In this document: positions 45,690 to 62,455 of the stretch, one piece after another | Position numbering within the stretch: the stretch's first letter is position 1 | How the letters are laid out: the number at the start of each line of letters is the position of its first letter | Assembly (NCBI GenBank): GCA_903871775.1 | Contig: CAIQIA010000007.1 | Span: 124,001 to 188,000 of the forward strand | Direction: 5' to 3' | Origin: an uncultured cyanobacterium | Lineage (GTDB): Bacteria; Cyanobacteriota; Cyanobacteriia; PCC-6307; Cyanobiaceae | DNA: 64,000 bases | Program-made: the position numbers and the translations under genes | Notes under the pieces: generated by a model | The model's database searches: none | What the model saw: only the letters and a program-made list of their open reading frames with translations | What the model was told of the DNA's origin: nothing

Positions 45690-48377
45690 TCAGCCCAGGG
45701 CGCCGCGCAGCTTCTCCTCCGCCGCCTTCAGAGCCCCATCCAGGGCCGAGCCATCGCGGCCGCCGGCCTGGGCCAGGTTGGGGCGGCCGCCGCCGCCGCC
45801 GCCGCAGGCTTTCGCCACATCGCCGATGAACTTGCCCGCCTGCTGGCCGGCGGCCACCACCGCTGAGCCAAAAGCAGCCACAAGGACAACCTTTCCCAGA
45901 TCCGCGGGGTCGGGCAAGCCGCCAATCACAACGGCAGTGCCGATCCCGACCTGCTCCTGCAGCTTCTGCGCCACAACCTGAAGACTGGCTCCCTCGACAC
46001 CATCCAGGCGCTTCACCAGGATCTTGAGAGGCTCGCCTCCGGAAGTCGTGCCGACCTGCACGGCCTGGGCCGCCAACGCCGCGGCTTTGGCCACCGCCAG
46101 CTCGGAACGGGCCGCCGCCAGGGCCTTGCCGGTGGCCTTGAGCTCGTCCTGCAGGGCGCCCACCCGCTCGACGATCTCGCCGGGCTGCACCTTGAAGCGA
46201 TCGGCCAGCTCGCGAACGACCCGGTCGCGCTCGGCCACCCAGGCGAGCACCGCCGGGCCCGCCACCGCCTCGATGCGACGGATGCCGGCGGCCACACCAC
46301 CCTCCGAAATGATCTTGAACAGGCCGATCTCGGCGGTGTTGGCCACATGGGTGCCGCCGCAGAGCTCCATCGACACGCCGGGCACGTCGACCACGCGCAC
46401 CACGTCGGCGTACTTCTCGCCGAACATCGCCACGGCCCCCGCAGCCCTCGCCCGCTCGATCTCCATCTCCTGCACCTCGAGGTCATGGGCCTCGGCGATC
46501 CAGCCGTTGATCAGGGCCTCGATCTGCTCCAGCTCATCGGCGCTCACCGGTCGCGGGCAGTGGAAGTCGAAGCGCAGGCGGTCGAAGTCGACCAGGGAAC
46601 CGGCCTGGCCGATGGCCGGATCCACCACCTGCTTGAGGGCCGCCTGCAGCAGATGGGTGGCGGTGTGGTTCGCCTGGGCGCGGCGGCGGCAGGTGCGGTC
46701 CACCTGGGCCGTCACCAGATCCCCCACCAGCAGCTGGCCCCGCTCGACGCGGCCGGCATGCACGAAGACGCTGCGGTTGCGGCTGACACCCTCGATCAGC
46801 ACGATCACCCCCTCGCCCCCGGCGCCCTCCCCCGACAGCACGCCGCGGTCGCCCACCTGGCCACCGCCCTCGCCATAGAAGGGGGTGCTGTCGAGCACGA
46901 GCTGCACCCGGTCGCCGGCGACCGCCCGTTCGGCGGGGGCACCGTTCACCACCAGCGCCAGCACGCAGCTGGGGTGCTCGAGGGCTTCGTAACCCTTGAA
47001 GGCGGTGGCCTGGCTGGCGGCGGCCACCTGGTCGATCGCCTCCTGCAGGGTGAGGTCGATGCTGACCGCCGCCGCCTTGGCCCGCTGCCGCTGCTGCTCC
47101 ATCGCCGCCTCGAAGCCGGCCAGATCCACGCTGAGGCCGTGCTCCTCGGCAATCTCTTCGGTCAGCTCGAGCGGGAAGCCGTAGGTGTCGTAGAGCTCGA
47201 AGGCCTGGGCGCCGCTGATCTGCGCCGGCCTGGCCGCCAGCACCTCGGCCAGCAGCTTCTCGCCCCGCTCGAGGGTCTCGAGGAACCGGGCCTCCTCCCG
47301 CTCCAGCTCGGCCACGATCGCGCCCCGGCGCTCTTCGAGGGCCGGGTGGACCTCGGCCATCAGGGTGATCGCCGCCTCGCCCATCGCCATCAGAAACGGC
47401 CGGTCGATGCCCAGCAGCCGGCCGTGGCGCACCACCCGCCGCAGCAGCCGCCGCAGGATGTAGCCGCGGCCGAGGTTGCTGGCGGTGACGCCATCGCCGA
47501 TCAGCTGGGTGACGGCGCGGCTGTGGTCGCCGATCACCTTGAGGCTGGTCTTGCCCTTCTCGTCGAGGGCGGGGTAGGCCACCCCGGCCAGGCCGGCCGC
47601 CGTTTCGATCAGCGGGTAGATCAGGTCGGTCTCATAGTTGTTGGGCACCCCCTGCAGGATCTGGGCCATCCGCTCGAGCCCCATGCCGGTGTCGATGCAG
47701 CGGCTGGCGAGGGGCGTGAGCACCCCCGCGGCGTCGCGGTTGTACTGCATGAACACCAGGTTGTAGAACTCGATGAAGCGGCTGTCGTCCTCCAGGTCGA
47801 TGCCGTCGTCGCCGTCTTCGGGGCGGAAGTCGTAATAGATCTCGGAACAGGGCCCGCAGGGGCCGGTGGGGCCCGACGCCCAGAAGTTGTCGGCTTCATC
47901 CATGCGGATGATCCGCTTCGGGTTCACCCCCACCACGTCGCGCCAGATCGCCTCGGCTTCGTCGTCTTCGCGGAACACGCTCACCACCAGGTTGCGGGGC
48001 GCCAGGCCGAAGACCTCGGTGCTCAGCTCCCAGGCCCAGCAGATCGCCTGCTCCTTGAAGTAATCACCGAACGAGAAGTTGCCGAGCATCTCGAAGAACG
48101 TGTGGTGCCGCGCCGTGCGGCCCACGTTCTCGATGTCGTTGGTGCGGATGCACTTCTGGCTGCTGGTGGCCCTGGGGGCCGGCCGTTCGGCCTGGCCCAG
48201 GAACACCGGCTTGAACGGCAGCATGCCGGCGATGGTGAGCAGCACCGTGGGGTCTTCGGGCACCAGCGAAGCGCTGGGCAGGCGCCGGTGGTCGCGGGCC
48301 TCGTAGAACCGCAGGAACGCCTCGCGGATCTCAGCGCCGGAGCGGGGGCGGGGGCCGGCAGGAGAGGCGGCGGTCAT
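45690..48377 (-). CDS. alaS: Alanine-tRNA ligase
   Basis: An 895-residue synthetase. The catalytic domain has [36 protein letters not shown] and [20 protein letters not shown]. The editing domain has [17 protein letters not shown] and the zinc-site [18 protein letters not shown]. The C-Ala domain ends with [20 protein letters not shown]. Length and order are typical. The start is ATG 48377 ([20 protein letters not shown]); an upstream open frame belongs to the SNF2 antisense and is not family-like. It diverges from the SNF2 gene across 97 bases. Confidence 0.97.
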
Positions 48378-48474
48378 GGTGGAGCGGAGCGCAGGGCCAT
48401 GATCCCGCAACGGCCGGCGGGGCGCGGCGGGTGCAGGATGGCGGGATGGTGGTCCCCTTCGCCGTGCGGCCGCG

Positions 48475-51400
48475 ATGACCCTTCTGCATGCGGCCTGGCT
48501 GACGGAAGCGGGCGGCCCCCGGCTGCTGCTGTGGGCCGACACCTGGCGGGTGGCCAAGGGGCGGCGCCTCGACGAGCTCGACGCCACGCCGGAGCACCCG
48601 CTGGCCCTCTCGGCCGCTGACCTGAGCGCCTGGCTGCAGGAGCGGGAGCTGTTGCCCGAGGGCGCCACCCCCAGGCCGGCGCAGCTGACCCTGCCCAGCC
48701 GCAGCAGCGGCCTGCCGCTGATGGCCGGTGAACCGCTGCCGAGGCAGCTGCAGTGGTGGCCCTGGCGCCTCGAGGGCCTTGCCCTCGATCCCGCCGCGGC
48801 CGGCCCCTGGCTGGAGGGGCTTCCCCTGTCGGGGGACCATCCCGAGCTGGGCGACGACCTGCGCTGGTGGGCCCATCTGCAGCGCTGGGTGCTGAGCCTG
48901 GTGGCCCGCGGCCGCTGGCTGCCGCTGGTGACGCCACCGGCCGCCGACGGCCGCCGCCGGGCCCTCTGGCAGCCGCTGCTCAACCACGAAGACGACCGCC
49001 GCCGTCTGGAGGATCTGGCGGCACGGCTGCCCCAGGTGGTGGCCGCCGCCGACGGGAGCGACGGCCTGGCCTGCCGCCGGCCGGGCAGCGCCAGGCTGCG
49101 GGTGGCGGCCATCGTCACCGAACTGCTCGACGGCCAGCTGCGCCAGGCGCCGACCGACGACGACCTGGAGGGGCTCGACCCGCTGCTCACGGCCTGGCGC
49201 CGGGCCCTGGGCCCCGGCAGCGGCCGGCTCGACCTCCCTGAAGAAGATGGCGAACGGCTGGGCACCGCCACCGCCCACTGGCGGGAGACGGTGGCGGGGC
49301 GGGTGGCCCCGGCCCGGGCGGTGCTCGAGCTCGAGACCCCGGCCGCCGGCGAAGACCTCTGGACCCTGCGCTTCGGCCTGCAGGCCGAGGCCGATCCCGA
49401 ACTGCGCGTGCCGGCGGCGACGGTCTGGGAGACCGGCGACGGCACGATGCTGCTGGGGGAAAACACTGTCCCCCAGCCCGGCGAGCTGCTGCTCGAGGGG
49501 CTGGGCCGGGCCCTGGTGGTGTTCGAACCCCTGGCCCGCGGCCTCGAGGAGGCCACGCCGGTGGCGATGGCGCTGGCACCGGCCGAGGCCTTCGTGCTGG
49601 TGCGCACCGCCACCGCCCGCCTGCGGGACGTGGGGGTGGGGGTGGTGCTGCCGCCAAGCCTGAGCGGCGGGCTGGCGAGCCGCCTGGGCCTGGCGATCGA
49701 GGCCGACCTGCCATCCAGCTCCCGCGGCTTCAGCCTCGGCGAATCGCTCGACTGGCGCTGGGAGCTGATGATCGGCGGCGTCACCCTCAGCCTCAGGGAT
49801 CTGGAGCGGCTGTCGGCCAAGCGCAGCCCACTGGTGCAGCACAAGGGGGCCTGGATCGAGCTGCGGCCCAGCGACCTGAAGAACGCCGAACGCTTCTGCG
49901 CCGCCGATCCGGGCCTGAGCCTCGACGATGCCCTGCGCCTCACCGCCACAGAAGGCGAGACGCTGATGCGGCTGCCGGTGCATCGCTTCAGCGCCGGCCC
50001 ACGGCTGCAGGCGGTGCTTGAGCAGTACCACCAGATGAAGGCCCCGGATCCGCTGCCGGCGCCTGAGGGCTTCAGCGGCCAGCTGCGGCCCTACCAGGAA
50101 CGGGGCCTGGGCTGGCTGGCCTTTCTGCACCGGTTCGACCAGGGGGCCTGCCTGGCCGATGACATGGGCCTGGGCAAGACGATCCAGCTGCTGGCCTTTC
50201 TGCAGCACCTCAGGGCCGAGCAGGAGCTCAAGCGGCCCGTACTGCTGGTGGCGCCCACCTCGGTGCTGACCAACTGGCAGCGGGAGGCGTCGCTGTTCAC
50301 CCCCCAGCTGGTGGTGCGGGAGCACTACGGCCCCAGGAGACCCTCCAGCGAGGCGGCCCTGCGCAAGGCCCTTGACGGTGTCGATCTGGTGCTGACCAGC
50401 TACGGGCTGCTGCAGCGCGACGCCGACCTGCTGCAGACGATCGACTGGCAGGGGGTGGTGATCGACGAGGCGCAGGCGATCAAGAACCCGGCGGCGAAGC
50501 AGAGCCAGGCCGCCCGCGGCCTGGCCCGCCCGGGCCGCCAGAGCCGCTTCCGCATCGCCCTCACGGGCACACCGGTCGAGAACCGGGTCAGCGAGCTCTG
50601 GGCCCTGATGGACTTCCTCAACCCCAAGGTGCTGGGGGAGGAGGGCTTCTTCCGCCAGCGCTACCGCCTGCCGATCGAGCGCTACGGCGACATGAGTTCC
50701 CTGCGGGACCTGAAGGCCCGGGTGGGGCCGTTCATCCTGCGGCGCCTCAAGACCGACCGCTCGATCATCACCGACCTGCCCGAGAAGCTCGAACTGCGCG
50801 AATGGGTGGGCCTGTCGAGCGAACAGGTGAGCCTCTACCGCCGCACGGTCGAGGCGAGCCTGGAAGCCATCGCCCGGGCCCCCCAGGGCCAGCGCCATGG
50901 CCAGGTGCTGGCCCTGCTCACCCGCCTCAAGCAGATCTGCAACCATCCGGCCCTGGTGCTGGGGGAGGACACGGTGGCCGCCGGGTTCGCCGGCCGCAGC
51001 GCCAAGCTGCTGCGGCTTGAGGAGATCCTGGAAGAAGTGATCGACGCCGGCGACCGCGCCCTGCTGTTCACCCAGTTCGCCGAATGGGGCCATCTGCTGC
51101 GGTCGTGGCTCGAGCAGCGCTGGCGCCAGGAGGTGCCGTTCCTGCATGGCGGCAGCAGCAAGGGCGAACGCCAGGCGATGGTCGATCGCTTCCAGGAGGA
51201 CCCCCGCGGGCCGCAGCTGTTCCTGCTGTCGCTGAAGGCCGGTGGCGTCGGCCTCAACCTCACCCGGGCCAGCCATGTGTTCCACATCGACCGCTGGTGG
51301 AACCCCGCCGTGGAGAACCAGGCCACCGACCGCGCCTACCGCATCGGCCAGCAGAACCGGGTGCTGGTGCACAAGTTCATCACCAGCGGCTCGATCGAAG

Positions 51401-51540
51401 AGAAGATCGACCGCATGATCCAGGAGAAGGCGCGGCTGGCCGAAGACATCGTCGGCTCGGGCGAAGACTGGCTGGGGGGCCTGGAGGTGGGCCAGCTGCG
51501 GGAGCTGGTGGCCCTCGGCGACGGCGTCGGCGAGGACTGA
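48475..51540 (+). CDS. SNF2-family DEAD/DEAH ATPase
   Basis: A 1021-residue protein. The N-terminal half (about residues 1-520) is a helical, poorly conserved region found in bacterial SNF2 proteins. The C-terminal half is a full Swi2/Snf2 motor: [18 protein letters not shown] (Walker A near residue 562), [26 protein letters not shown] (DEAQ box near 664), [51 protein letters not shown] and [20 protein letters not shown]. Motors of this kind translocate on DNA or remodel protein-DNA complexes. It heads a run with the SWIM and MEKHLA genes. Confidence 0.93.
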
Positions 51541-51543
51541 GCC

Positions 51544-52716
51544 ATGGGCGACGGTCGCCGGTTGCCCCGGGTCACCTGGTATCGCAACGGCCATGAGCAG
51601 TCGGTGCAGCTGCACAAGTTCGGCCTGATGCGGCTGGCGGCGGCGGGCCGCATCACGCTGCGGGAGCTGCCGGTGACGGCGGCCGCCGCCGAACTGCCCC
51701 CCGAGCTGGTGGCCCACCCCTGGCGGCGCCTGGTGGTGATCGCCGTTGAGCACAGCGGTGAGCGGATGCTGGCGGCCATCGACGGGGAAGACTCGCCGTT
51801 TCAGCTGTCCGACGTCCTGCGGCACGTGGACCGCTACTTCACCTGCACCTACGCCCCCTGCGTCTACGAGGAGCGACGCTTCGGCTTCGCCCTGCCCTGG
51901 CAGACCGACGCCGAACGGCGCCCTTATGTGGAGTGGCAGGAACGGGTCACCGATCGGCTCGGGCACCTGTTCCACCGGGTGCGGCCCACGGCCCCGATCG
52001 GTCCGGCCCTGCCCGACATCCGCCAGAGCGACTGGCTGATGACCCGTCTGGGCCACCTGCGCACCAAGGTGCGACGGCGCTTCACCGACACGATCGACTG
52101 GCACCCGCAGCTGGCGGGATTCGAGGCCCGCTGGAGCCAGCTGCAGCAGTGGCGGGCACTGCCGCCCACGGCCGACATCGTGCTCAAGGACAGCCTCTGG
52201 GGCTGGCCCCGCCATCGCATCGCCCTGCACCGCGCCCTGGCGCGCCTGGCGGCCGACGGCTGGACGGTGAAGGCCGAGCTGCACCACCGCCAGGCGGAGC
52301 CCTACGAGCTGGGGGACCAGCCCCCCCCGGATCCGGCCGCCTTCCCGATGCTGGTGGGCGGCGGCGTCGGCCCCGGCTACGAGACCGCTCTGGCCGCCAG
52401 CCGCGTCGGCGTCTTCGCCACCGGGTTCCACTACGGCTGGCGCAACATCGTCACCCTCGCCTGGGCCATCGGCCTGCCGGTGCTGAGCGACCCGATCCCC
52501 TACCGCTTCCCCTTCGACCATCGACCGCTGCTCAGCGAGACCGACGGCGACTGGAACGACCTGGAGGCCCGGCTGCGGCCCCTGGCCACCCCGGACCCGG
52601 CGGCACGGCAGCGGCGGCTGGAGCACTTCGATGCCGTCTGCTCACCGCTGGCGGTGGGGCAGCAGCTGCTGGACGACTGCCTCGGCCGCCGGTCGGAGGG
52701 CCAGACTGGCGACTGA
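51544..52716 (+). CDS. Unknown protein with glycosyltransferase-like C-terminus
   Basis: A 390-residue protein with no recognised family. The C-terminal part resembles the donor-binding half of GT-B glycosyltransferases: PMLVGGGVGPGYETALAASR, then VGVFATGFHYGWRNIVTLAW and AIGLPVLSDPIPYRFPFDHR, where a small-residue turn, a strand and a SDPIP-like end would cradle a nucleotide sugar. Earlier regions are rich in Trp/Arg and include YFTCTYAPCVYEERRFGFAL. It lies three bases after the SNF2 stop and seven bases before the SWIM gene, so it is part of that operon. Similarity is weak; sugar transfer is only a guess. Confidence 0.5.
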   Translation: MGDGRRLPRVTWYRNGHEQSVQLHKFGLMRLAAAGRITLRELPVTAAAAELPPELVAHPWRRLVVIAVEHSGERMLAAIDGEDSPFQLSDVLRHVDRYFTCTYAPCVYEERRFGFALPWQTDAERRPYVEWQERVTDRLGHLFHRVRPTAPIGPALPDIRQSDWLMTRLGHLRTKVRRRFTDTIDWHPQLAGFEARWSQLQQWRALPPTADIVLKDSLWGWPRHRIALHRALARLAADGWTVKAELHHRQAEPYELGDQPPPDPAAFPMLVGGGVGPGYETALAASRVGVFATGFHYGWRNIVTLAWAIGLPVLSDPIPYRFPFDHRPLLSETDGDWNDLEARLRPLATPDPAARQRRLEHFDAVCSPLAVGQQLLDDCLGRRSEGQTGD

Positions 52717-54498: not shown

Positions 54499-54539
54499 AG
54501 CAACTGTCGGCATCCTGAGGTCACCGAGAGCGTTCAGGC

Positions 54540-57500
54540 ATGCACAGCAGCCGCCAGTGGTGGCGGACCCTCGGCCTGGGCGCCCGGGACTGGGTGACGG
54601 GCCTGGCCGAGGATCCGGCCGGTGGGGTGCTGTTGCTGGGCTTCTCGATCGCCGCTGCCGCCCGGCCCTTTCTGGTGCGCCTGCTGCCGTCGGGCACGGT
54701 CGACTGGATCCGCCCCTACGCAGACGGCGTCATCCCAGGGTCCGATCAACAGGCCTTCGGCCTGGCCCTGGGCCCCGGCGGTGCGATCTACACCGCCGGC
54801 TTTGAGAAGGGCCCCACACCCCCGGGCCTGCGCCCGGGGCTCAGCGATGGAGCACTGACAAGCCTCAACGCCGCCGGCACGGTTCTCTGGCGCCGCTGGA
54901 TCGGCAGCCCGAGGCTGGAGCAGCTGGCCGGCGTCGGCACCAGCCCCACGGGCACCGTGCTGGTGGCCGGCTGGACCGATGGCACGGTCACGGCCACCAA
55001 TGCCGGCGGCATGGATCTGCTGATCCAGGCCTTGGATACCGGCGGCAACCTGCTGTGGAGCCGCCAGCTGGGGGGAAGCGGCCAGGACCGTCCCTCGGCC
55101 ATGGCCACCACCAGTGATGGAGGGCTGGTGGTGGTCGGGCACAGCACGGGCCCCCTGGCAGGGCTGGCGAACAGCGGCCTCGAGGATGCCTTCGTGCTGC
55201 GGTTCGACGCTGCCGGCTCCCTGCTCTGGGCCCGGTCGATCGCCAGCGCCGGCACCGACCATGGCTACGGCGTTCTGGTGACACCAGACGGCGACATCCT
55301 CGTCACCGGTCGCATGGCCGGCAGCGACTGGAGTCCTGCGGGGGGCGACCCGGCGGATGCGTACCTGGCCCGTTTCAGTCCTGACGGCAGCCCACGCTGG
55401 CTGCGCCGTTTCGGCTCGACCGCCTACGAGTACGGCCGCAGCCTGGCGCTCACCCCGACCGGCGAGATTCTCGTCAGCGGCCGGACGGAAGGGGATCTGC
55501 AGGGCCTCGCCAACCAGGGAGGCTTTGACGGTTACGTGGCGCTGTTCTCGGCGGACGGCCGCCATCTGGGCAGCCGCCTCTACGGAACGACGGGCAACGA
55601 CGCAGCCAATGCCCTGCTGACCCTGGCGAACGGTGATGTGATCGTCGCGGGCATGACCGAGGGGAACCTGGAGGGGCTGCCGAACGAAGCCCCTGGCACC
55701 TACGACCTGTTCGTCGAGCGCACAACCCTCGGGACGACGGGTCCCTGGCGGCCCCGGCTCACGAACCCCCGCCCCGACGGGATCGACCTCACCCCCGGCA
55801 CGCCCCTGGCCGGCAGCCTCAGCCTGTGGGCGGGCGCCGGCGGCGGCCAGCCCCTCACCCTGCCCCTCGCCGGTGGTTCCCCCGTTTCCCTCTCGGGACT
55901 GAATCCCGGCCAGCGCTACAGCTACCGGCTGGAGGGGGCCGGGGGAACCCTGGAGGGGGGGTTCCGCACACTGCCCGCCGTCAATGGCCGCGAACCCTGG
56001 CGGCTGGTGGCCCTGCCCGCCGGCCCAGGGGCCCTCAGCCCATCCCTGCTGGACCTGGCTGAACAGCTGCAGCCGCAGGTGCTGCTGGCCGCGACGGCCT
56101 CGGTGCTGGCAGGGGCGGCTGAGGTGCCGTTGCTGCAACGCACCGCCTGGATCGGCGCCCTGACGGGCGACCAGCAGAACGACGTGGGTCCGTTGACGGT
56201 GGTGAGCGTGGCCGAGAGCGGTGCCGCCGACCTGGCGGCAGGCACCCCCCGCTGGGAGGCGATCAGGGCCAGCCTCAACGTGCTGAGAAACGCCGGACGC
56301 ACCATCGTGCTGCTGCTGCCGGCGACCACCCCCTCTGCCGTCGATCGGCTGGCCCTGTCTGAGGGGGTGGCGGCGGTCGTCAGGGCTCCCCTCGACGGGC
56401 TGCTGGACCTGCAGTTCCGCCAGTACCTCCAGCCCACGGCCCAGGGGGCCGCTGGCTGCCTGAGCCTGACCCCGCTGGCGAGCCAGGGGAGCCGCGGCAC
56501 CACGGTCCATGTGCAGGTCACGGCCCTGGGGGCTCCCCTGCCAGCAGCGGTGGGGCCGATCGACACGAGCCCACCGCCGCCACCCCGTCTGCAGCTGCTG
56601 AAGGACAGCGGCAGCTCGGCCACGGACGGGCTCACCAATGCACCGGAGGTGGCGATCACAGGCCTGGAGCCGGCGGGCATCTGGCAATGGTCCGCCGATG
56701 GCGGTCGCCGCTGGACCGACGGCGTGGGCAACGGTCTGGTGCTGCCTGCCGACGGTGCCTGGTCGCTGCTGGCGCGACAGATCGATCGTTCGGGTCTGGT
56801 GTCGCCGGTGTCCCTGCCCCTGGCGGTCAGCCTCGACCGCCAGAGTCCAGCCATCACGCCGGTGTTGACCAGCGTCAGCGATGACCACGGCAGCGTTCAG
56901 GGTCTGGTGCCTGCCCTGGGCTGGTTCAGCGATCGCACGCCGCTGCTGCAGGGCACCCTGGCGGCCCCCCCCGGCCCGACCGAGCGGCTGATGCTGCTGG
57001 TCAACGGCCGACCCAGCGGTGATGCCCGGATCGGGGCGGGTGGCACCGACTGGTCGATCCAGCCCCTGCTGACGGTGCCGGACGGCCCCGTGACCGTGCA
57101 GCTGCAGCTGATCGACGGTGCCGGCAATGGCGGCCCGGCCTCGCTGGCGTTTCAGGCGACCCTCGACAGCACGGCACCCACCACCGTGCCGCTGCTGACC
57201 GCGTTGATCGATGACCGGGGTCCGCGGCAGGGGCCCCTGGCCCAGGGAGCGGTCACCGATGACGACACGCCGTTGCTCCAGGGGACGCTCTCGGGTCCCC
57301 TGGCCCAGGGCGACACCCTCGAGGTTCTCGCCAACGGGGTGGTGATCGGCACGGTGGTGCGCCTGGGGCCGGGCAACGGCTGGTCGCTGCCGCTGCTGTT
57401 GCCGCAGGGCCCTGGCACCGCCATCAGCCTCACCGCCAGGGTGGTGGATGCCGCCGGCAATGCCGGCCGGGCCGCTGCGGCCCGCCGCCTGGTGGTCGAC

Positions 57501-58835
57501 ACCGTGGCACCGGCGATGGCCACGACGATCACAGCCGTGATCGACGACCACGGGGCCCGCCAGGGGGCCGCCGCCCCCGGCGACTGGATCAGTGACCGCA
57601 CCCCCCGAATTCTCGGCAGCCTCAGCGCGCCGGCCGGGGCCGGCGAGGTGGTGCAGGTGCTGAACGGGGACACCGTGCTCGGCAGCGCCGTGCTGGCAGC
57701 CGACCGCCGCAGCTGGGGGTTCACGGCCACCGTGCCAGCGACCGTGGCGGCGCTGACCCTGCGGGCCCGGGTGGTGGACGCGGCCGGCAACAGCGGTGCC
57801 CTGTCCGCCGATCACCCCCTGCAGGTGGACAGCCTGGCCCCCACCGTCGTGCCGTTGATCACGGCCGTGCTGGATGACAGCGGACCGGTGACCGGTCCGG
57901 TTCCCGCCGGTGGCACCAGTGACGATTTCACGCCCCTGGTGACGGGCACCCTGACGGGTCCCACGGCCCCAGGCGAGGTGGTCGAGGTGCTCGACGGCGC
58001 GCGCTCCCTGGGCACCGTGACGCCAGATGCGCTGACGGGTCTGTGGAGCCTGCCGCTGAACCTCGCCCCCACCCTGAACCGCCATCTGCAGCTGCGGGCC
58101 AGGGTGGTGGATCCGGCGGGCAACACGGGCCCTGTGGCCTACGGACCGGCCTGCACCCTGGCGAGCCCGCCGCCGCCGGGGCCGGTGCTGCGGCTGCTGC
58201 CCCTGGGGGATTCGCTCACCGACGGCGCCACGGTGCCCGGCGGATACCGGGGCGTGCTGCAGCAGAAGGGGCAGCTGCCGGGGCAACCCCTTGATCTGGT
58301 CGGTCGGCAGCTGCAGCTGCTGGCCGCCGACCCCAGCCCCGATCCCGACCACTGGGGCGTACCAGGGCTGACCATGGCGGGGCTGACGGCTCAGTTGCCG
58401 GCGGCCATGGCCAGCCTGAGGGACACGAGCCGTCCTGGAGATCCGGCGGCGGTGCTGCTGCTGATCGGCGCCAACGACCTGCTGAACGCCGTCACGGCGA
58501 CCGCGGCCCCGGCGGCCCTCACGACCCTGCTGCAGACCATGGATCGGCTGATCGCCCCGGGGGCCCCGCCGTTGCCGGTGCTGCTCGGAACCCTGCCGCC
58601 CCTGCAGCCGCCCACCCAGACCAACCGGGTGGCCGCCGACACCCTCGCCCTCAACAGCTGGATCACCGGCACGGCGGCATCGCTCTCGACCCCACGGATG
58701 ACGGTGCAGGCGGTGGACCTCACCACACCCCTCGTCGGGTTGCTCGACGCCGGCGGACTCCATCCCACGGCCCAGGGCTACGGGGTGATGGCCGACCACT
58801 GGCTGCTGGCCCTGCAGAGCTCGGGTCTGCTCTGA
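54540..58835 (+). CDS. Giant protein: seven-blade propeller, Ig-like repeats and C-terminal SGNH hydrolase
   Basis: A 1431-residue protein. Residues about 15-395 contain seven propeller blades, each with a (T/S)P(D/T)G-x-(I/V)LV(A/T/S)G signature (SPTGTVLVAGWTDG, TSDGGLVVVGHSTG, TPDGDILVTGRMAG, TPTGEILVSGRTEG, LANGDVIVAGMTEG). A fibronectin-like module (LNPGQRYSYRLEG) and an unassigned alpha/beta region (about 480-660) follow. From about 772 to 1205, four Ig-like repeats of about 105 residues share ITAVIDDHG and VVDAAGN motifs. Residues about 1215-1431 form an SGNH/GDSL hydrolase: LPLGDSLTDGA (Ser), LLIGANDLLNAV and GGLHPTAQGYGVM (His). No signal peptide is found; export is likely but the route is unknown. 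Confidence 0.8.
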   Translation: MHSSRQWWRTLGLGARDWVTGLAEDPAGGVLLLGFSIAAAARPFLVRLLPSGTVDWIRPYADGVIPGSDQQAFGLALGPGGAIYTAGFEKGPTPPGLRPGLSDGALTSLNAAGTVLWRRWIGSPRLEQLAGVGTSPTGTVLVAGWTDGTVTATNAGGMDLLIQALDTGGNLLWSRQLGGSGQDRPSAMATTSDGGLVVVGHSTGPLAGLANSGLEDAFVLRFDAAGSLLWARSIASAGTDHGYGVLVTPDGDILVTGRMAGSDWSPAGGDPADAYLARFSPDGSPRWLRRFGSTAYEYGRSLALTPTGEILVSGRTEGDLQGLANQGGFDGYVALFSADGRHLGSRLYGTTGNDAANALLTLANGDVIVAGMTEGNLEGLPNEAPGTYDLFVERTTLGTTGPWRPRLTNPRPDGIDLTPGTPLAGSLSLWAGAGGGQPLTLPLAGGSPVSLSGLNPGQRYSYRLEGAGGTLEGGFRTLPAVNGREPWRLVALPAGPGALSPSLLDLAEQLQPQVLLAATASVLAGAAEVPLLQRTAWIGALTGDQQNDVGPLTVVSVAESGAADLAAGTPRWEAIRASLNVLRNAGRTIVLLLPATTPSAVDRLALSEGVAAVVRAPLDGLLDLQFRQYLQPTAQGAAGCLSLTPLASQGSRGTTVHVQVTALGAPLPAAVGPIDTSPPPPPRLQLLKDSGSSATDGLTNAPEVAITGLEPAGIWQWSADGGRRWTDGVGNGLVLPADGAWSLLARQIDRSGLVSPVSLPLAVSLDRQSPAITPVLTSVSDDHGSVQGLVPALGWFSDRTPLLQGTLAAPPGPTERLMLLVNGRPSGDARIGAGGTDWSIQPLLTVPDGPVTVQLQLIDGAGNGGPASLAFQATLDSTAPTTVPLLTALIDDRGPRQGPLAQGAVTDDDTPLLQGTLSGPLAQGDTLEVLANGVVIGTVVRLGPGNGWSLPLLLPQGPGTAISLTARVVDAAGNAGRAAAARRLVVDTVAPAMATTITAVIDDHGARQGAAAPGDWISDRTPRILGSLSAPAGAGEVVQVLNGDTVLGSAVLAADRRSWGFTATVPATVAALTLRARVVDAAGNSGALSADHPLQVDSLAPTVVPLITAVLDDSGPVTGPVPAGGTSDDFTPLVTGTLTGPTAPGEVVEVLDGARSLGTVTPDALTGLWSLPLNLAPTLNRHLQLRARVVDPAGNTGPVAYGPACTLASPPPPGPVLRLLPLGDSLTDGATVPGGYRGVLQQKGQLPGQPLDLVGRQLQLLAADPSPDPDHWGVPGLTMAGLTAQLPAAMASLRDTSRPGDPAAVLLLIGANDLLNAVTATAAPAALTTLLQTMDRLIAPGAPPLPVLLGTLPPLQPPTQTNRVAADTLALNSWITGTAASLSTPRMTVQAVDLTTPLVGLLDAGGLHPTAQGYGVMADHWLLALQSSGLL

Positions 58836-58887: not shown

Positions 58888-60645
58888 ATGTCCCCCGTCG
58901 CGCCGCCGCCCGCCCCGCCGCGGCTGAGCCTGCAGAGCGCAGCGATCGCGCCCGAGACCACGGCCCTGCGGTCCCTCGACTGGGACCGCAGCCGCTTCGA
59001 CATCGAATTCGGCCTGCGCAACGGCACCACCTACAACGCCTTTCTGATCCGCGGCCAGCGCACGGCCCTGATCGACACCAGCCACGCCAAGTTCCGCGAG
59101 AGCTGGCTGCCGCAGCTGCAGTCCCTGATCGATCCCCGGGCGATCGATCATCTGGTGGTGTCGCACACCGAACCCGACCATTCGGGGCTGGTGGCCGACC
59201 TGCTGGAGCTCAACCCCGACCTGGAGGTGGTGGGCTCGAAGGTGGCGATCAACTACCTCGAGCACCAGGTGCACCGGCCCTTCCGCAGCCGGGCGGTCAA
59301 GAGCGGCGACAGCCTCGACCTGGGCTGCGCCGACGGCGGCACCAGCGACCACCGGCTCGAGTTCGTGAGTGCCCCGAACCTGCACTGGCCCGACACGATC
59401 TTCAGCTACGACCACGGCACCGGCGTGCTCTACAGCTGCGATGCCTTCGGGCTGCACTACTGCAGCGACGAGGTGTTCGACAGCGATCCCGGCGCCATCG
59501 CCCCCGACTTCCGCTTCTACTACGACTGCCTGATGGGGCCCAATGCCCGCAGCGTGCTGCAGGCCCTCAAGCGCCTTGAGGCCCTGCCCCCCGTGACCAC
59601 CATCGCCACGGGCCACGGACCGCTGCTGCGCCACCACCTGGGCCTGTGGCTGGGGGATTACGACGCCTGGAGCCGTGATCGCAGCAAGGGCGACCGCTAC
59701 GCGGCGGTGGCCTACGTGAGCCAGTACGGGTTCTGTGACCGGCTGAGCCAGGCGATCGCCCGCGGCATCGGCAAGACCGACCTGCCGGTGCAGCTGGTTG
59801 ATCTGCGCGGCACCGATCCCCAGGAGCTCACGGCCCTGATCGGCGACGCCGCTGCCGTGGTGCTGCCGACACCGCCGGCCCGGCCGGACGGCGACCTGCG
59901 GGCCGCCTGGGGCACGGTGCTGGCGGCCCTGCGCCCCAGCCAGCCGGTGGGCCTCTACGACGCCTACGGCGGCAACGACGAACCCATCGATGCCATCGGC
60001 CAGCAGCTGCGGGACCTTGGGCACGCCGAAGCCTTCCCGCCCCTGCGGATCCGCACGGTGCCCGACGCCACCGCCTTCCAGCAGTGTGAAGAGGCCGGCA
60101 CCGACCTGGGTCAGCTGCTGCTGCGGGACAAGGCCATCGCCGCCATGAAGGCCCTCGACGCCGACCTCGACAAGGCCCTGGGTCGCCTCAGCGGTGGCCT
60201 CTACATCGTCACGGCCCGCCAGGGCGAGGGGGAGGCCGCCCGCAGCGGCGCCATGGTGGCCAGCTGGGTGAGCCAGGCCAGCTTCGATCCACCGGGGCTC
60301 ACGGTCGCCGTCGCCCGCGACCGGGCCATCGAATCCCTGATGCAGGTGGGTGACCGCTTCGTGCTCAACGTGCTGGCCGAGGGCAACCACCAGCAACTGC
60401 TGCGCCACTTTCTGCGGCGCTTCCCCCCCGGTGCCGACCGCTTCGCCGGTGTCGCCACCCTGACCGACGTGGCCCGGGGCGGTCCGGTGCTGACCGAGGC
60501 GCTGGCCTACCTCGACTGCCGGGTGCTGCAACGGCTCGAAGGCGGCGACCACTGGCTCATCTACGCCGAGGTTGAGAACGGCAACGTGGCCGACGCCGAA
60601 GGGCGCACGGCCACCCACCATCGCAAGGTGGGCAACCACTACTGA
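58888..60645 (+). CDS. flv3: Flavodiiron protein Flv3
   Basis: A 585-residue class C flavodiiron protein. The metallo-beta-lactamase domain has all diiron ligands: VSHTEPDHSGLV (His93, Glu95, Asp97, His98), SAPNLHWPD, VLYSCDAFGLH and IATGHGPLL. A flavodoxin domain (about 270-400) and a C-terminal flavin reductase domain (about 430-585, GAMVASWVSQASFDPPGLTV) follow. With Flv1 it photoreduces oxygen to water at photosystem I under changing light. Full ligands identify Flv3 rather than Flv1. flv1 follows after 22 bases. Confidence 0.9.
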   Translation: MSPVAPPPAPPRLSLQSAAIAPETTALRSLDWDRSRFDIEFGLRNGTTYNAFLIRGQRTALIDTSHAKFRESWLPQLQSLIDPRAIDHLVVSHTEPDHSGLVADLLELNPDLEVVGSKVAINYLEHQVHRPFRSRAVKSGDSLDLGCADGGTSDHRLEFVSAPNLHWPDTIFSYDHGTGVLYSCDAFGLHYCSDEVFDSDPGAIAPDFRFYYDCLMGPNARSVLQALKRLEALPPVTTIATGHGPLLRHHLGLWLGDYDAWSRDRSKGDRYAAVAYVSQYGFCDRLSQAIARGIGKTDLPVQLVDLRGTDPQELTALIGDAAAVVLPTPPARPDGDLRAAWGTVLAALRPSQPVGLYDAYGGNDEPIDAIGQQLRDLGHAEAFPPLRIRTVPDATAFQQCEEAGTDLGQLLLRDKAIAAMKALDADLDKALGRLSGGLYIVTARQGEGEAARSGAMVASWVSQASFDPPGLTVAVARDRAIESLMQVGDRFVLNVLAEGNHQQLLRHFLRRFPPGADRFAGVATLTDVARGGPVLTEALAYLDCRVLQRLEGGDHWLIYAEVENGNVADAEGRTATHHRKVGNHY

Positions 60646-60667
60646 TCCCCCGTCCGAGCGTTTGACC

Positions 60668-62455
60668 ATGGCCAGCAGCACCGGCGCCGCCGGCGACGAC
60701 CGTTCGGTGGTGGTCCTGCCCCTGGACGATGGCAGCCTCTGCCTGCGGGGCCTGAGCCCGCGGCGGCTCCGCTTCGAGGTCGAATACGCCCTCGAGCGCG
60801 GCACCTGCAGCAACAGCGTGCTCTTCCCGGGGGCGCCAAGCCTGCTGGTGCATCCCCCGGGCGACACCTTCGCCGGCCCGTTCCTCGAGGCCCTGGCCGA
60901 ACGGCTGCCCGCCGGAGCGCCGCTGCTGGTGGTGGTGGGCGACGTGAACCCGAACCGGGTGGGGCTGCTGCAGCGGCTGCTGGGGTCATGGCCCCAGCTC
61001 GAGCTGGTGGTCTCCAATGCCGGGGCCAGGCTGCTGCAGGACCTGTGGGAGCGGCGCCGGCCCGGAGACGAGGCCCCCCCACCGCCGCCGCTGCCGCCGC
61101 TGCGGGTCGTCAAGGGAGACGAGAGCCTGCCCTGGAACGGCGGCGACCTGCGGTTGCTGGCCACCCCCACCCCCCGCTGGCCGGCGGCCCTGGCGGCCTT
61201 CGACGGGGCCAGCGGCCTGCTGATGAGCGGCCGGTTCTTCTCGGCCCATGTGTGCACGCCGGTGCTGGCCGAAGCCAACCGCAGCAGCACCGAAGACGAC
61301 CGCCGCTACTACTTCGACTGCCTGATGGCCCCCATGGCCAGCCAGGTGGAGGCGGTGGTCGACCGGCTCGAAAGCCTGCCGATCCGCAGCCTGCTGCCCC
61401 TGCATGGCCCGATGGTGAGCGAGAGCTGGCGCAGCCTTCTGGCCGACTACCGCCGCTGGGGGGAGGGGCAACAGCGGGCCTCCCAGGCGGTGGCGCTGCT
61501 CTATGCCAGTGCCTACGGCAACACCGCCGCCATCGCCGATGCGATCGCCCAGGGCATCGCCCGCGCCGGCGTGCGGGTCACGAGCATCAACTGCGAATTC
61601 GCCGAAGCCGACCAGCTGATCAGTGCCATCCGCTCCTGCGACGCGCTGCTGATCGGCTCCCCCACCCTCGGCGGCCATGCGCCGACACCGATCGTCTCAG
61701 CCCTGGGCACGGTGCTGGCCGAGGGCGACCGCGACAGGCCGGTAGGGGTGTTCGGCAGCTACGGCTGGAGTGGTGAGGCCCTGGATCTGCTGGAGTCAAA
61801 GCTCACCGATGGGGGCTTTTCCATGGCCTTCGCCCCGATCCGGGTCAAGTTCAGCCCCGACCCCGCCACCCTGCGGCAGTGCGAAGAGACCGGCACGGCC
61901 CTGGCTCGTCAGCTGCGGCAACGGCAACGACGCCAGGCCAACCGTGGCGGCGGCCTCAGCGAAAGCCGCAGCGACCCGGCGGTGCGGGCCCTCGGGCGGG
62001 TGATCGGCTCCCTGTGTGTGCTCACGGCCCGCCGGGGCGAGGGCGAAACGGCCCTCGAAGGGGCGATGGTGGCCAGCTGGGTGAGCCAGGCGGGCTTCCA
62101 GCCGCCGGCGGTGTCGGTGGCCGTGGCCCGGGATCGGGCGGTGGAGAGCCTGCTGCATGTGGGCGACCGCTTCGCCCTGAACGTGCTGGCCGCCGGCCGG
62201 GAGCTGGGGCCGATGAAGCAGTTCCTGCAGCCCTTTTCCCCCGGCAGTGATCGCTTCGCCGGGCTCGATCTGCAACGCAGTCCGGCGGGTCAGCCCGTGC
62301 TGCCCGACGCCCTGGCCTGGCTCGAAGCCACGGTGATGCAGCGCATGGAGTGCGGCGATCACTGGGTGCTCTACGCCGAGGTGACCGCCGGGGGGCTGCT
62401 CGATGATCAGGCCCAGACGGCCGTTCACCACCGGCGCACCGGAGCCGGCTACTGA
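60668..62455 (+). CDS. flv1: Flavodiiron protein Flv1
   Basis: A 595-residue class C flavodiiron protein, the partner of Flv3. The diiron site is not canonical: the first ligand block reads VVVGDVNPNRVGLLQ, lacking the HxExDH residues, and the second reads LLMSGRFFSAHV where Flv3 has the bridging Asp. This loss is typical of Flv1. The flavodoxin domain (ALLYASAYGNTAAIADAIAQ) and the flavin reductase domain (GAMVASWVSQAGFQPPAVSV) are intact. The start is ATG 60668. Confidence 0.9.
   Translation: MASSTGAAGDDRSVVVLPLDDGSLCLRGLSPRRLRFEVEYALERGTCSNSVLFPGAPSLLVHPPGDTFAGPFLEALAERLPAGAPLLVVVGDVNPNRVGLLQRLLGSWPQLELVVSNAGARLLQDLWERRRPGDEAPPPPPLPPLRVVKGDESLPWNGGDLRLLATPTPRWPAALAAFDGASGLLMSGRFFSAHVCTPVLAEANRSSTEDDRRYYFDCLMAPMASQVEAVVDRLESLPIRSLLPLHGPMVSESWRSLLADYRRWGEGQQRASQAVALLYASAYGNTAAIADAIAQGIARAGVRVTSINCEFAEADQLISAIRSCDALLIGSPTLGGHAPTPIVSALGTVLAEGDRDRPVGVFGSYGWSGEALDLLESKLTDGGFSMAFAPIRVKFSPDPATLRQCEETGTALARQLRQRQRRQANRGGGLSESRSDPAVRALGRVIGSLCVLTARRGEGETALEGAMVASWVSQAGFQPPAVSVAVARDRAVESLLHVGDRFALNVLAAGRELGPMKQFLQPFSPGSDRFAGLDLQRSPAGQPVLPDALAWLEATVMQRMECGDHWVLYAEVTAGGLLDDQAQTAVHHRRTGAGY

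What the first reader, a model, noticed from the sequence alone, without database searches (positions are those of the whole stretch)
54540..58835. 1431-residue protein joining a seven-blade propeller, four Ig-like repeats and an SGNH hydrolase
The order of propeller, Ig-like stalk and catalytic SGNH head suggests a surface or secreted enzyme held away from the cell on a rigid stalk. Three of the four Ig-like repeats share ITAV(I/L)DD.G, so they arose by duplication. The middle alpha/beta part follows a fibronectin-like module and resembles a phosphoesterase without metal ligands. The combination was not recognised as a known architecture.
Basis: partly seen in the sequence, partly recalled or inferred. 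Interest (0 to 1): 0.65.

Follow-up and report, generated by a model that had tools for sequence, protein, structure and literature searches.

The report
Mosaic propeller–Ig–esterase protein, genus-restricted
A freshwater-type picocyanobacterium carries a real 1431-residue mosaic protein made of a seven-bladed propeller, a short unclassified middle part, five Ig-like units and a CE3-like acetyl-esterase head; each recognisable part is of a known kind, but the combination was found only in the two genomes held of its genus.

Summary
The ORF (54540-58835, +, 1431 aa) is real. A full-length ortholog (82% identity, dN/dS 0.23 overall, all segments below 0.4) sits at the same locus in the only other genome held of the genus. 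The parts were confirmed: a seven-bladed SBBP/delta-60 propeller (seven repeats of about 57 aa; best solved relative CylK); four duplicated Big_13 Ig-like repeats plus one divergent Ig-like unit; and a C-terminal SGNH/GDSL head with CE3 marks (GxSxT, a DFVG..DxD-like calcium motif). Block V is unusual: D-AGGL-H in place of D-x-x-H, so a standard triad is not shown. The middle part is a PAP/PhoD-type Fn3 followed by an alpha/beta segment with no family match. Its strand order suits a metal-less phosphoesterase, but sequence tests do not prove this. There is no signal peptide and no anchor, so 'held away from the cell on a stalk' is unproven. The genome has an HlyB-type exporter. The gene was inserted upstream of flv genes into an order conserved in other genera. 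The same genome has a sister: an Ig stalk with a NAGPA phosphodiester-glycosidase head. Most likely an exported polysaccharide O-acetyl esterase with a binding propeller: a new arrangement of known modules.

The parts
54540..58835 (+). Gene for the 1431-aa mosaic protein (stop codon included)
   Evidence: ortholog, dN/dS
54540..55733 (+). Residues 1-398: seven-bladed SBBP/delta-60 beta-propeller, starting at residue 1 with no signal peptide
   Evidence: Pfam SBBP E 6e-7, DUF5122 E 1e-6; CylK E 5e-35; seven repeats; AF2 strands at pLDDT mostly 70-88; Foldseek CylK E 2e-19
55746..55979 (+). Residues 403-480: Fn3-like module of PAP/PhoD type
   Evidence: hhalign z 6.9 against PAP-type Fn3; FN3con weak hit; Foldseek Fn3 matches
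55992..56540 (+). Residues 485-667: alpha/beta segment, no family match; strand order of a calcineurin-like phosphoesterase without its metal ligands (unproven)
56586..56849 (+). Residues 683-770: divergent Ig-like unit (WQWSADGG..W type), 47% identical to a unit of the sister NAGPA protein
56850..57179 (+). Residues 771-880: Ig-like repeat 1 (Big_13)
57180..57515 (+). Residues 881-992: Ig-like repeat 2 (Big_13)
57516..57848 (+). Residues 993-1103: Ig-like repeat 3 (Big_13)
57849..58163 (+). Residues 1104-1208: Ig-like repeat 4 (Big_13)
58164..58184 (+). Residues 1209-1215: short Pro-rich linker
   Evidence: sequence
58185..58832 (+). Residues 1216-1431: CE3-like SGNH/GDSL esterase head (Ser1225, Asn1312, His1408; DLVG 1252-1255 ... 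D1268-P-D1270; block V D1403-AGGL-H1408)
   Evidence: Pfam E 2.5e-16; 2VPT profile hit E 1.9e-15; alignment A3; motif positions; CE3 motifs from PMC9487903

Best explanation
A real, selectively maintained, genus-specific mosaic protein built from modules that picocyanobacteria shuffle widely. The most likely working: the protein leaves the cell by a signal-peptide-independent route (type I secretion is the best candidate; inferred). The N-terminal seven-bladed propeller and the Fn3/alpha-beta part act as binding or docking platform. The five Ig-like units are a semi-rigid spacer. The C-terminal CE3-like SGNH head removes O-acetyl groups (or similar short acyl esters) from polysaccharide, by Ser1225-His1408 with Asp1403 or a main-chain carbonyl orienting the histidine. 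Shown: architecture, homology of propeller, Ig units and head, purifying selection, genus restriction, insertion into a conserved locus. Inferred: export, substrate, activity, roles of propeller and middle part.
For: Head: Lipase_GDSL_2 E 2.5e-16. The closest solved relative is the CE3 esterase 2VPT (profile E 1.9e-15); CE3 block I GxSxT and the DFVGXnDXD calcium loop (as described in PMC9487903) are present as GDSLT and DLVG..DPD. S, G, N, H of the blocks are kept in both orthologs. CE2 relatives and the Streptomyces esterase SsEst work with a Ser-His dyad (PMC9487903). Extracellular context: several of the nearest head homologs in the family are fused to RTX repeats (L057: HemolysinCabind E 1e-18); some propeller relatives start at residue 1 without a signal peptide and some end in RTX-like repeats; an HlyB-type transporter scores over its cut-off. 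Propeller. Selection: dN/dS 0.15-0.40 in every segment. A sister Ig-stalk protein with a different glycan-related head (NAGPA) lies in the same genome.
Against: No signal peptide, anchor or recognised C-terminal secretion signal in this protein itself. The catalytic Asp is displaced by two residues; in CrmE10 the D178A mutant of the ordinary position is inactive (PMC7294632). The head lacks insertions of about 26 and 24 residues seen in its family relatives. Substrate and activity are untested. No neighbouring polysaccharide operon: the gene stands between housekeeping genes.
Confidence: 0.5

Rival explanations
1. Catalytically dead or nearly dead SGNH head: the protein is a structural or adhesive surface/exoprotein in which propeller, Ig units and head all serve binding.
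For: Block V Asp is not at H-3 in either ortholog; the middle part would also be a degenerate enzyme; D178A abolishes CrmE10 activity.
Against: Ser, Gly, Asn, His and the CE3 calcium motif are kept in both orthologs, and the head evolves under purifying selection (dN/dS 0.23). Natural Ser-His dyad enzymes exist. An Asp is still within the loop.
Confidence: 0.22
2. The protein stays inside the cell: an intracellular propeller scaffold with esterase, in the manner of the propeller enzyme CylK.
For: No signal peptide; best solved relative of the propeller is CylK.
Against: Big_13 Ig-like repeats and SBBP propellers are typical of exported proteins (own knowledge), and family homologs of both ends carry RTX repeats. 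CylK's catalytic residues are absent: D440 aligns with His241, Y473 with Ala272, and the domain that carries R105 is missing.
Confidence: 0.18
3. The middle alpha/beta part is a working phosphoesterase, so the protein is a two-enzyme phosphatase-esterase for organic phosphorus and acyl groups.
For: Preceded by a PAP/PhoD-type Fn3 (z 6.9); strand order fits; phosphatase-like genes lie about 20-35 kb away (by sequence reading).
Against: No Pfam/NCBIfam match. The alpha/beta part alone is no better than shuffles against phosphoesterase profiles. On the collinear reading all metal-ligand motifs (GD, GD, GNHD, GHH, GHDH) are replaced.
Confidence: 0.05

Closest known systems
CE3 carbohydrate esterases of the SGNH superfamily (CtCes3-1, PDB 2VPT; TcAE206, 5B5S)
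   Same: SGNH family, GxSxT block I, DFVGXnDXD-like calcium loop, best solved match by profile
   Different: Block V D-x4-H instead of D-x2-H; appended to propeller and Ig units; activity unknown
CylK-type seven-bladed propeller (PDB 7RON, 7FH6)
   Same: Propeller sequence E 5e-35 and fold
   Different: No N-terminal calcium beta-roll; Asp440 and Tyr473 not conserved; propeller is N-terminal, not C-terminal
RTX-linked SGNH proteins of the same family (L057, L058, L064, L065)
   Same: Among the closest head homologs in other genera; DHWG block
   Different: SGNH at the N-terminus plus RTX calcium repeats; canonical DGLHP; no propeller or Ig repeats
Ig-stalk NAGPA protein, 684 aa (L035:10672-12723 in the same genome; L068 in another genus)
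   Same: Homologous Ig-like units, including the WDWTVDGG unit, then one C-terminal catalytic head; no signal peptide
   Different: Phosphodiester-glycosidase head, no propeller
Fn3-containing purple-acid-phosphatase-like enzymes (L130 type)
   Same: Fn3 module of the same type directly before an alpha/beta domain with the same order of elements
   Different: Metal ligands absent; alpha/beta homology not statistically shown

Membership tests
SGNH/GDSL hydrolase superfamily | Family profile match over its cut-off | tested here: met
   Lipase_GDSL_2 61.1 bits against cut-off 32.9
SGNH/GDSL hydrolase superfamily | Invariant Ser, Gly, Asn, His of blocks I, II, III, V | tested here: met
   S1225, G1273/G1276, N1312, H1408, conserved in the ortholog and relatives
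SGNH/GDSL hydrolase superfamily | Block V Asp three residues before His | tested here: not met
   Gly1405 at H-3, Asp1403 at H-5; alignment A3 reads it as a two-residue insertion. Natural dyad members exist (PMC9487903), so this does not exclude membership
CE3 esterases | Block I GxSxT | tested here: met
   GDSLT at 1223
CE3 esterases | DFVGXnDXD calcium loop | tested here: met
   DLVG 1252 ... D1268-P-D1270, with Phe to Leu
CE3 esterases | Acetyl esterase activity on carbohydrate | not testable with these tools
   Needs an enzyme assay
Seven-bladed SBBP/delta-60 propeller | Seven repeats closing a propeller | tested here: met
   Seven repeats of 53-57 aa; 27 strands in AF2 model; Foldseek CylK
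CylK alkylating enzymes | Arg105, Asp440, Tyr473 and the N-terminal calcium domain | tested here: not met
   His241 and Ala272 at the aligned sites; N-terminal domain absent
Big_13 Ig-like repeats | Profile match and tandem repeats | tested here: met
   Four stretches, 54 bits; repeat z 15-27
Calcineurin-like metallophosphoesterase | Metal-ligand motifs and profile match | tested here: not met
   No Pfam match; alpha/beta part alone at shuffle level; ligand motifs absent
Type I secreted RTX protein | RTX nonapeptide repeats | tested here: not met
   No HemolysinCabind match; protein ends in the SGNH head

The most novel reading that the evidence does not exclude
The protein is one of a family of signal-peptide-less 'one stalk, exchangeable head' exoenzymes of picocyanobacteria (SGNH here, NAGPA in the sister), exported by a route not yet described for non-RTX proteins, and it carries a pseudo-phosphatase (Fn3 plus metal-free phosphoesterase fold) re-used as a glycan or phosphate binding module.
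Probability: 0.15. Interest if true: 0.5.

Novelty: new variant of a known kind. Interest (0 to 1): 0.3.

Why it matters
It gives a clean example of a young, genus-restricted mosaic gene inserted into a conserved locus and kept under selection, in picocyanobacteria. If the head is an active deacetylase, it would link these cells to polysaccharide processing. The shared Ig stalk with a different head (NAGPA) suggests a modular exoenzyme design whose export route can be tested in culture. The biology remains a recombination of known modules.

Tried and rejected
Pfam and NCBIfam on the middle part: no match. AF2 of the middle part with two sequences: pLDDT 47.5, pTM 0.42; its Foldseek search gave no match at E <= 0.001, the most probable ones being Fn3 domains, with Vps29 (phosphoesterase fold) at probability 0.23. 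Search of 399 genomes with the middle-part profile: only weak, chance-like partial hits; the best (L041) lies in an unrelated ORF. Profile comparison with PAP-like and CpdA-like phosphoesterases: only the Fn3 part is significant. CylK-like alkylation chemistry: rejected on catalytic residues. tblastn of the middle part in plasmids: one chance-level hit (E 7), in a PhoD-family protein and covering only the Fn3 segment. Antisense ORFs of similar length (54534-58799 and 48331-52626, -) are taken as high-GC shadow frames of the sense genes.

Full report
What is there. The open reading frame at 54540-58835 (+) encodes 1431 residues. Only seven codons lie between the ATG and the preceding in-frame stop, so no hidden signal peptide exists upstream. 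The host is a picocyanobacterium: the one named relative is a MAG deposited as Synechococcus sp. UW140, and 400 members of the same family were searched.

Reality. The only other genome held of the genus carries a collinear 1432-residue ortholog, 82% identical. dN/dS is 0.23 overall and 0.15-0.40 in every segment, so all parts, including the unclassified middle, are under purifying selection. In 400 genomes of the family no other full-length match exists; a peptide-pattern scan of 84,980 species found only this ortholog (that scan reaches close relatives only).

Locus. In both genomes of the genus the gene lies just upstream of the tandem diflavin flavoprotein genes (my reading of the sequence), here 58888-60645 and about 60572-62455. 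In three other genera the SNF2 and SWIM genes lie directly before flv3, with about 170-210 bp between SWIM and flv3 (L197, L204, L205); in a fourth (L194) SWIM and MEKHLA precede flv3 with about 700 bp between. The gene is therefore most simply read as an insertion into an otherwise conserved arrangement.

Propeller. Residues 1-398 hold seven repeats at 28, 81, 138, 194, 251, 308, 365. Pfam finds SBBP and DUF5122, NCBIfam finds delta-60 and LipL53-like matches. AF2 on residues 1-690 with two sequences gives 27 strands in groups of four between 16 and 396, with pLDDT mostly 70-88 there. Foldseek puts CylK first at E 2e-19, followed at a distance by other propellers, PLL/PHL lectins among them. 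CylK chemistry is not expected: Asp440 aligns with His241, Tyr473 with Ala272, and the domain that carries Arg105 is missing.

Middle part. Residues 403-480 behave as an Fn3 module of the purple-acid-phosphatase/PhoD type (profile comparison z 6.9 over shuffles). Residues 485-667 match no family. The predicted order of elements, beta-alpha-beta, beta-beta, alpha-alpha, beta-alpha-beta then hairpins, follows that of an Fn3-linked phosphoesterase, and by eye AAGTPRWEAIRASLNVLRNAGRTIVLLLP can be laid over its PGTPQVEWLERALSRSTATWKIAFGHHP. However, the alpha/beta part alone scored 13.1 against 13.6 +/- 2.6 for shuffles, so homology is not shown. AF2 confidence there is low.

Ig-like units. Four repeats at 110-111 residue spacing are clearly duplicates (34-48% identity, z 15-27). 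A fifth, divergent unit (683-770) precedes them; it is 47% identical to a unit in the sister protein.

Head. Residues 1216-1431 are an SGNH hydrolase (Pfam 61 bits against a cut-off of 32.9). A profile of the head and its family relatives finds the CE3 esterase 2VPT first (E 1.9e-15) and the CE3 enzyme TcAE206 (5B5S) next among natural proteins. The CE3 features reported in PMC9487903, block I GxSxT and the DFVGXnDXD calcium loop, are present as GDSLT and DLVG...DPD. Block V reads D1403-A-G-G-L-H1408 in the window (GI for GL in the ortholog), whereas family relatives read DGLHP or DGIHP. In ordinary enzymes the Asp matters (CrmE10 D178A inactive, PMC7294632), but CE2 members and SsEst work without it (PMC9487903). 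Activity is thus likely but not certain.

Export. No Sec or Tat signal, lipobox or anchor is visible in the sequence (my reading; no dedicated predictor was run). Several family homologs of the head are fused to RTX repeats, some propeller homologs also start at residue 1 and some end in RTX-like repeats, and the genome has a transporter over the HlyB cut-off. Type I secretion is the best candidate, but the window protein lacks RTX repeats, so this is inference.

Sister protein. About 8.7 kb beyond the right edge of the window (contig C7, 196671-198722, -) a 684-aa protein has Ig-like units homologous to those here and a NAGPA phosphodiester-glycosidase head, again without signal peptide; another genus has the same arrangement. 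The stalk is thus a shared module joined to different heads.

Verdict. It is a new arrangement of known modules confined, as far as could be searched, to one genus.

Noticed in passing
L035:10672-12723 (contig C7 196671-198722, -; outside the window): 684-aa protein with Ig-like units homologous to the finding's stalk and a NAGPA phosphodiester-glycosidase head; the same arrangement in another genus, L068:1265-3397.
   Followed up: partly
L100:6534-12962 (contig C7, right end; outside the window): Protein of more than 2143 aa cut by the contig end that reads as an esterase-like propeller, 5'-nucleotidase and Fn3-PhoD phosphatase in one chain; a PhoX-like 714-aa gene lies at L100:101-2245. Read by eye, apart from the Fn3 hit.
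   Followed up: partly
window 58888-62455: Tandem diflavin flavoprotein genes; in three other genera SNF2 and SWIM lie directly before flv3 without the finding's gene.
   Followed up: partly
window 48331-52626 (-) and 54534-58799 (-): Long antisense open frames (1431 and 1421 aa), taken as an effect of high GC; the equal length of 1431 aa is a coincidence.
   Followed up: no
L101:2142-6299 and L118:262-5823: Other mosaic proteins of the family that join a sugar-dehydrogenase-like propeller, an Fn3 module, an SBBP propeller and a parallel beta-helix-like region (read by eye).
   Followed up: no
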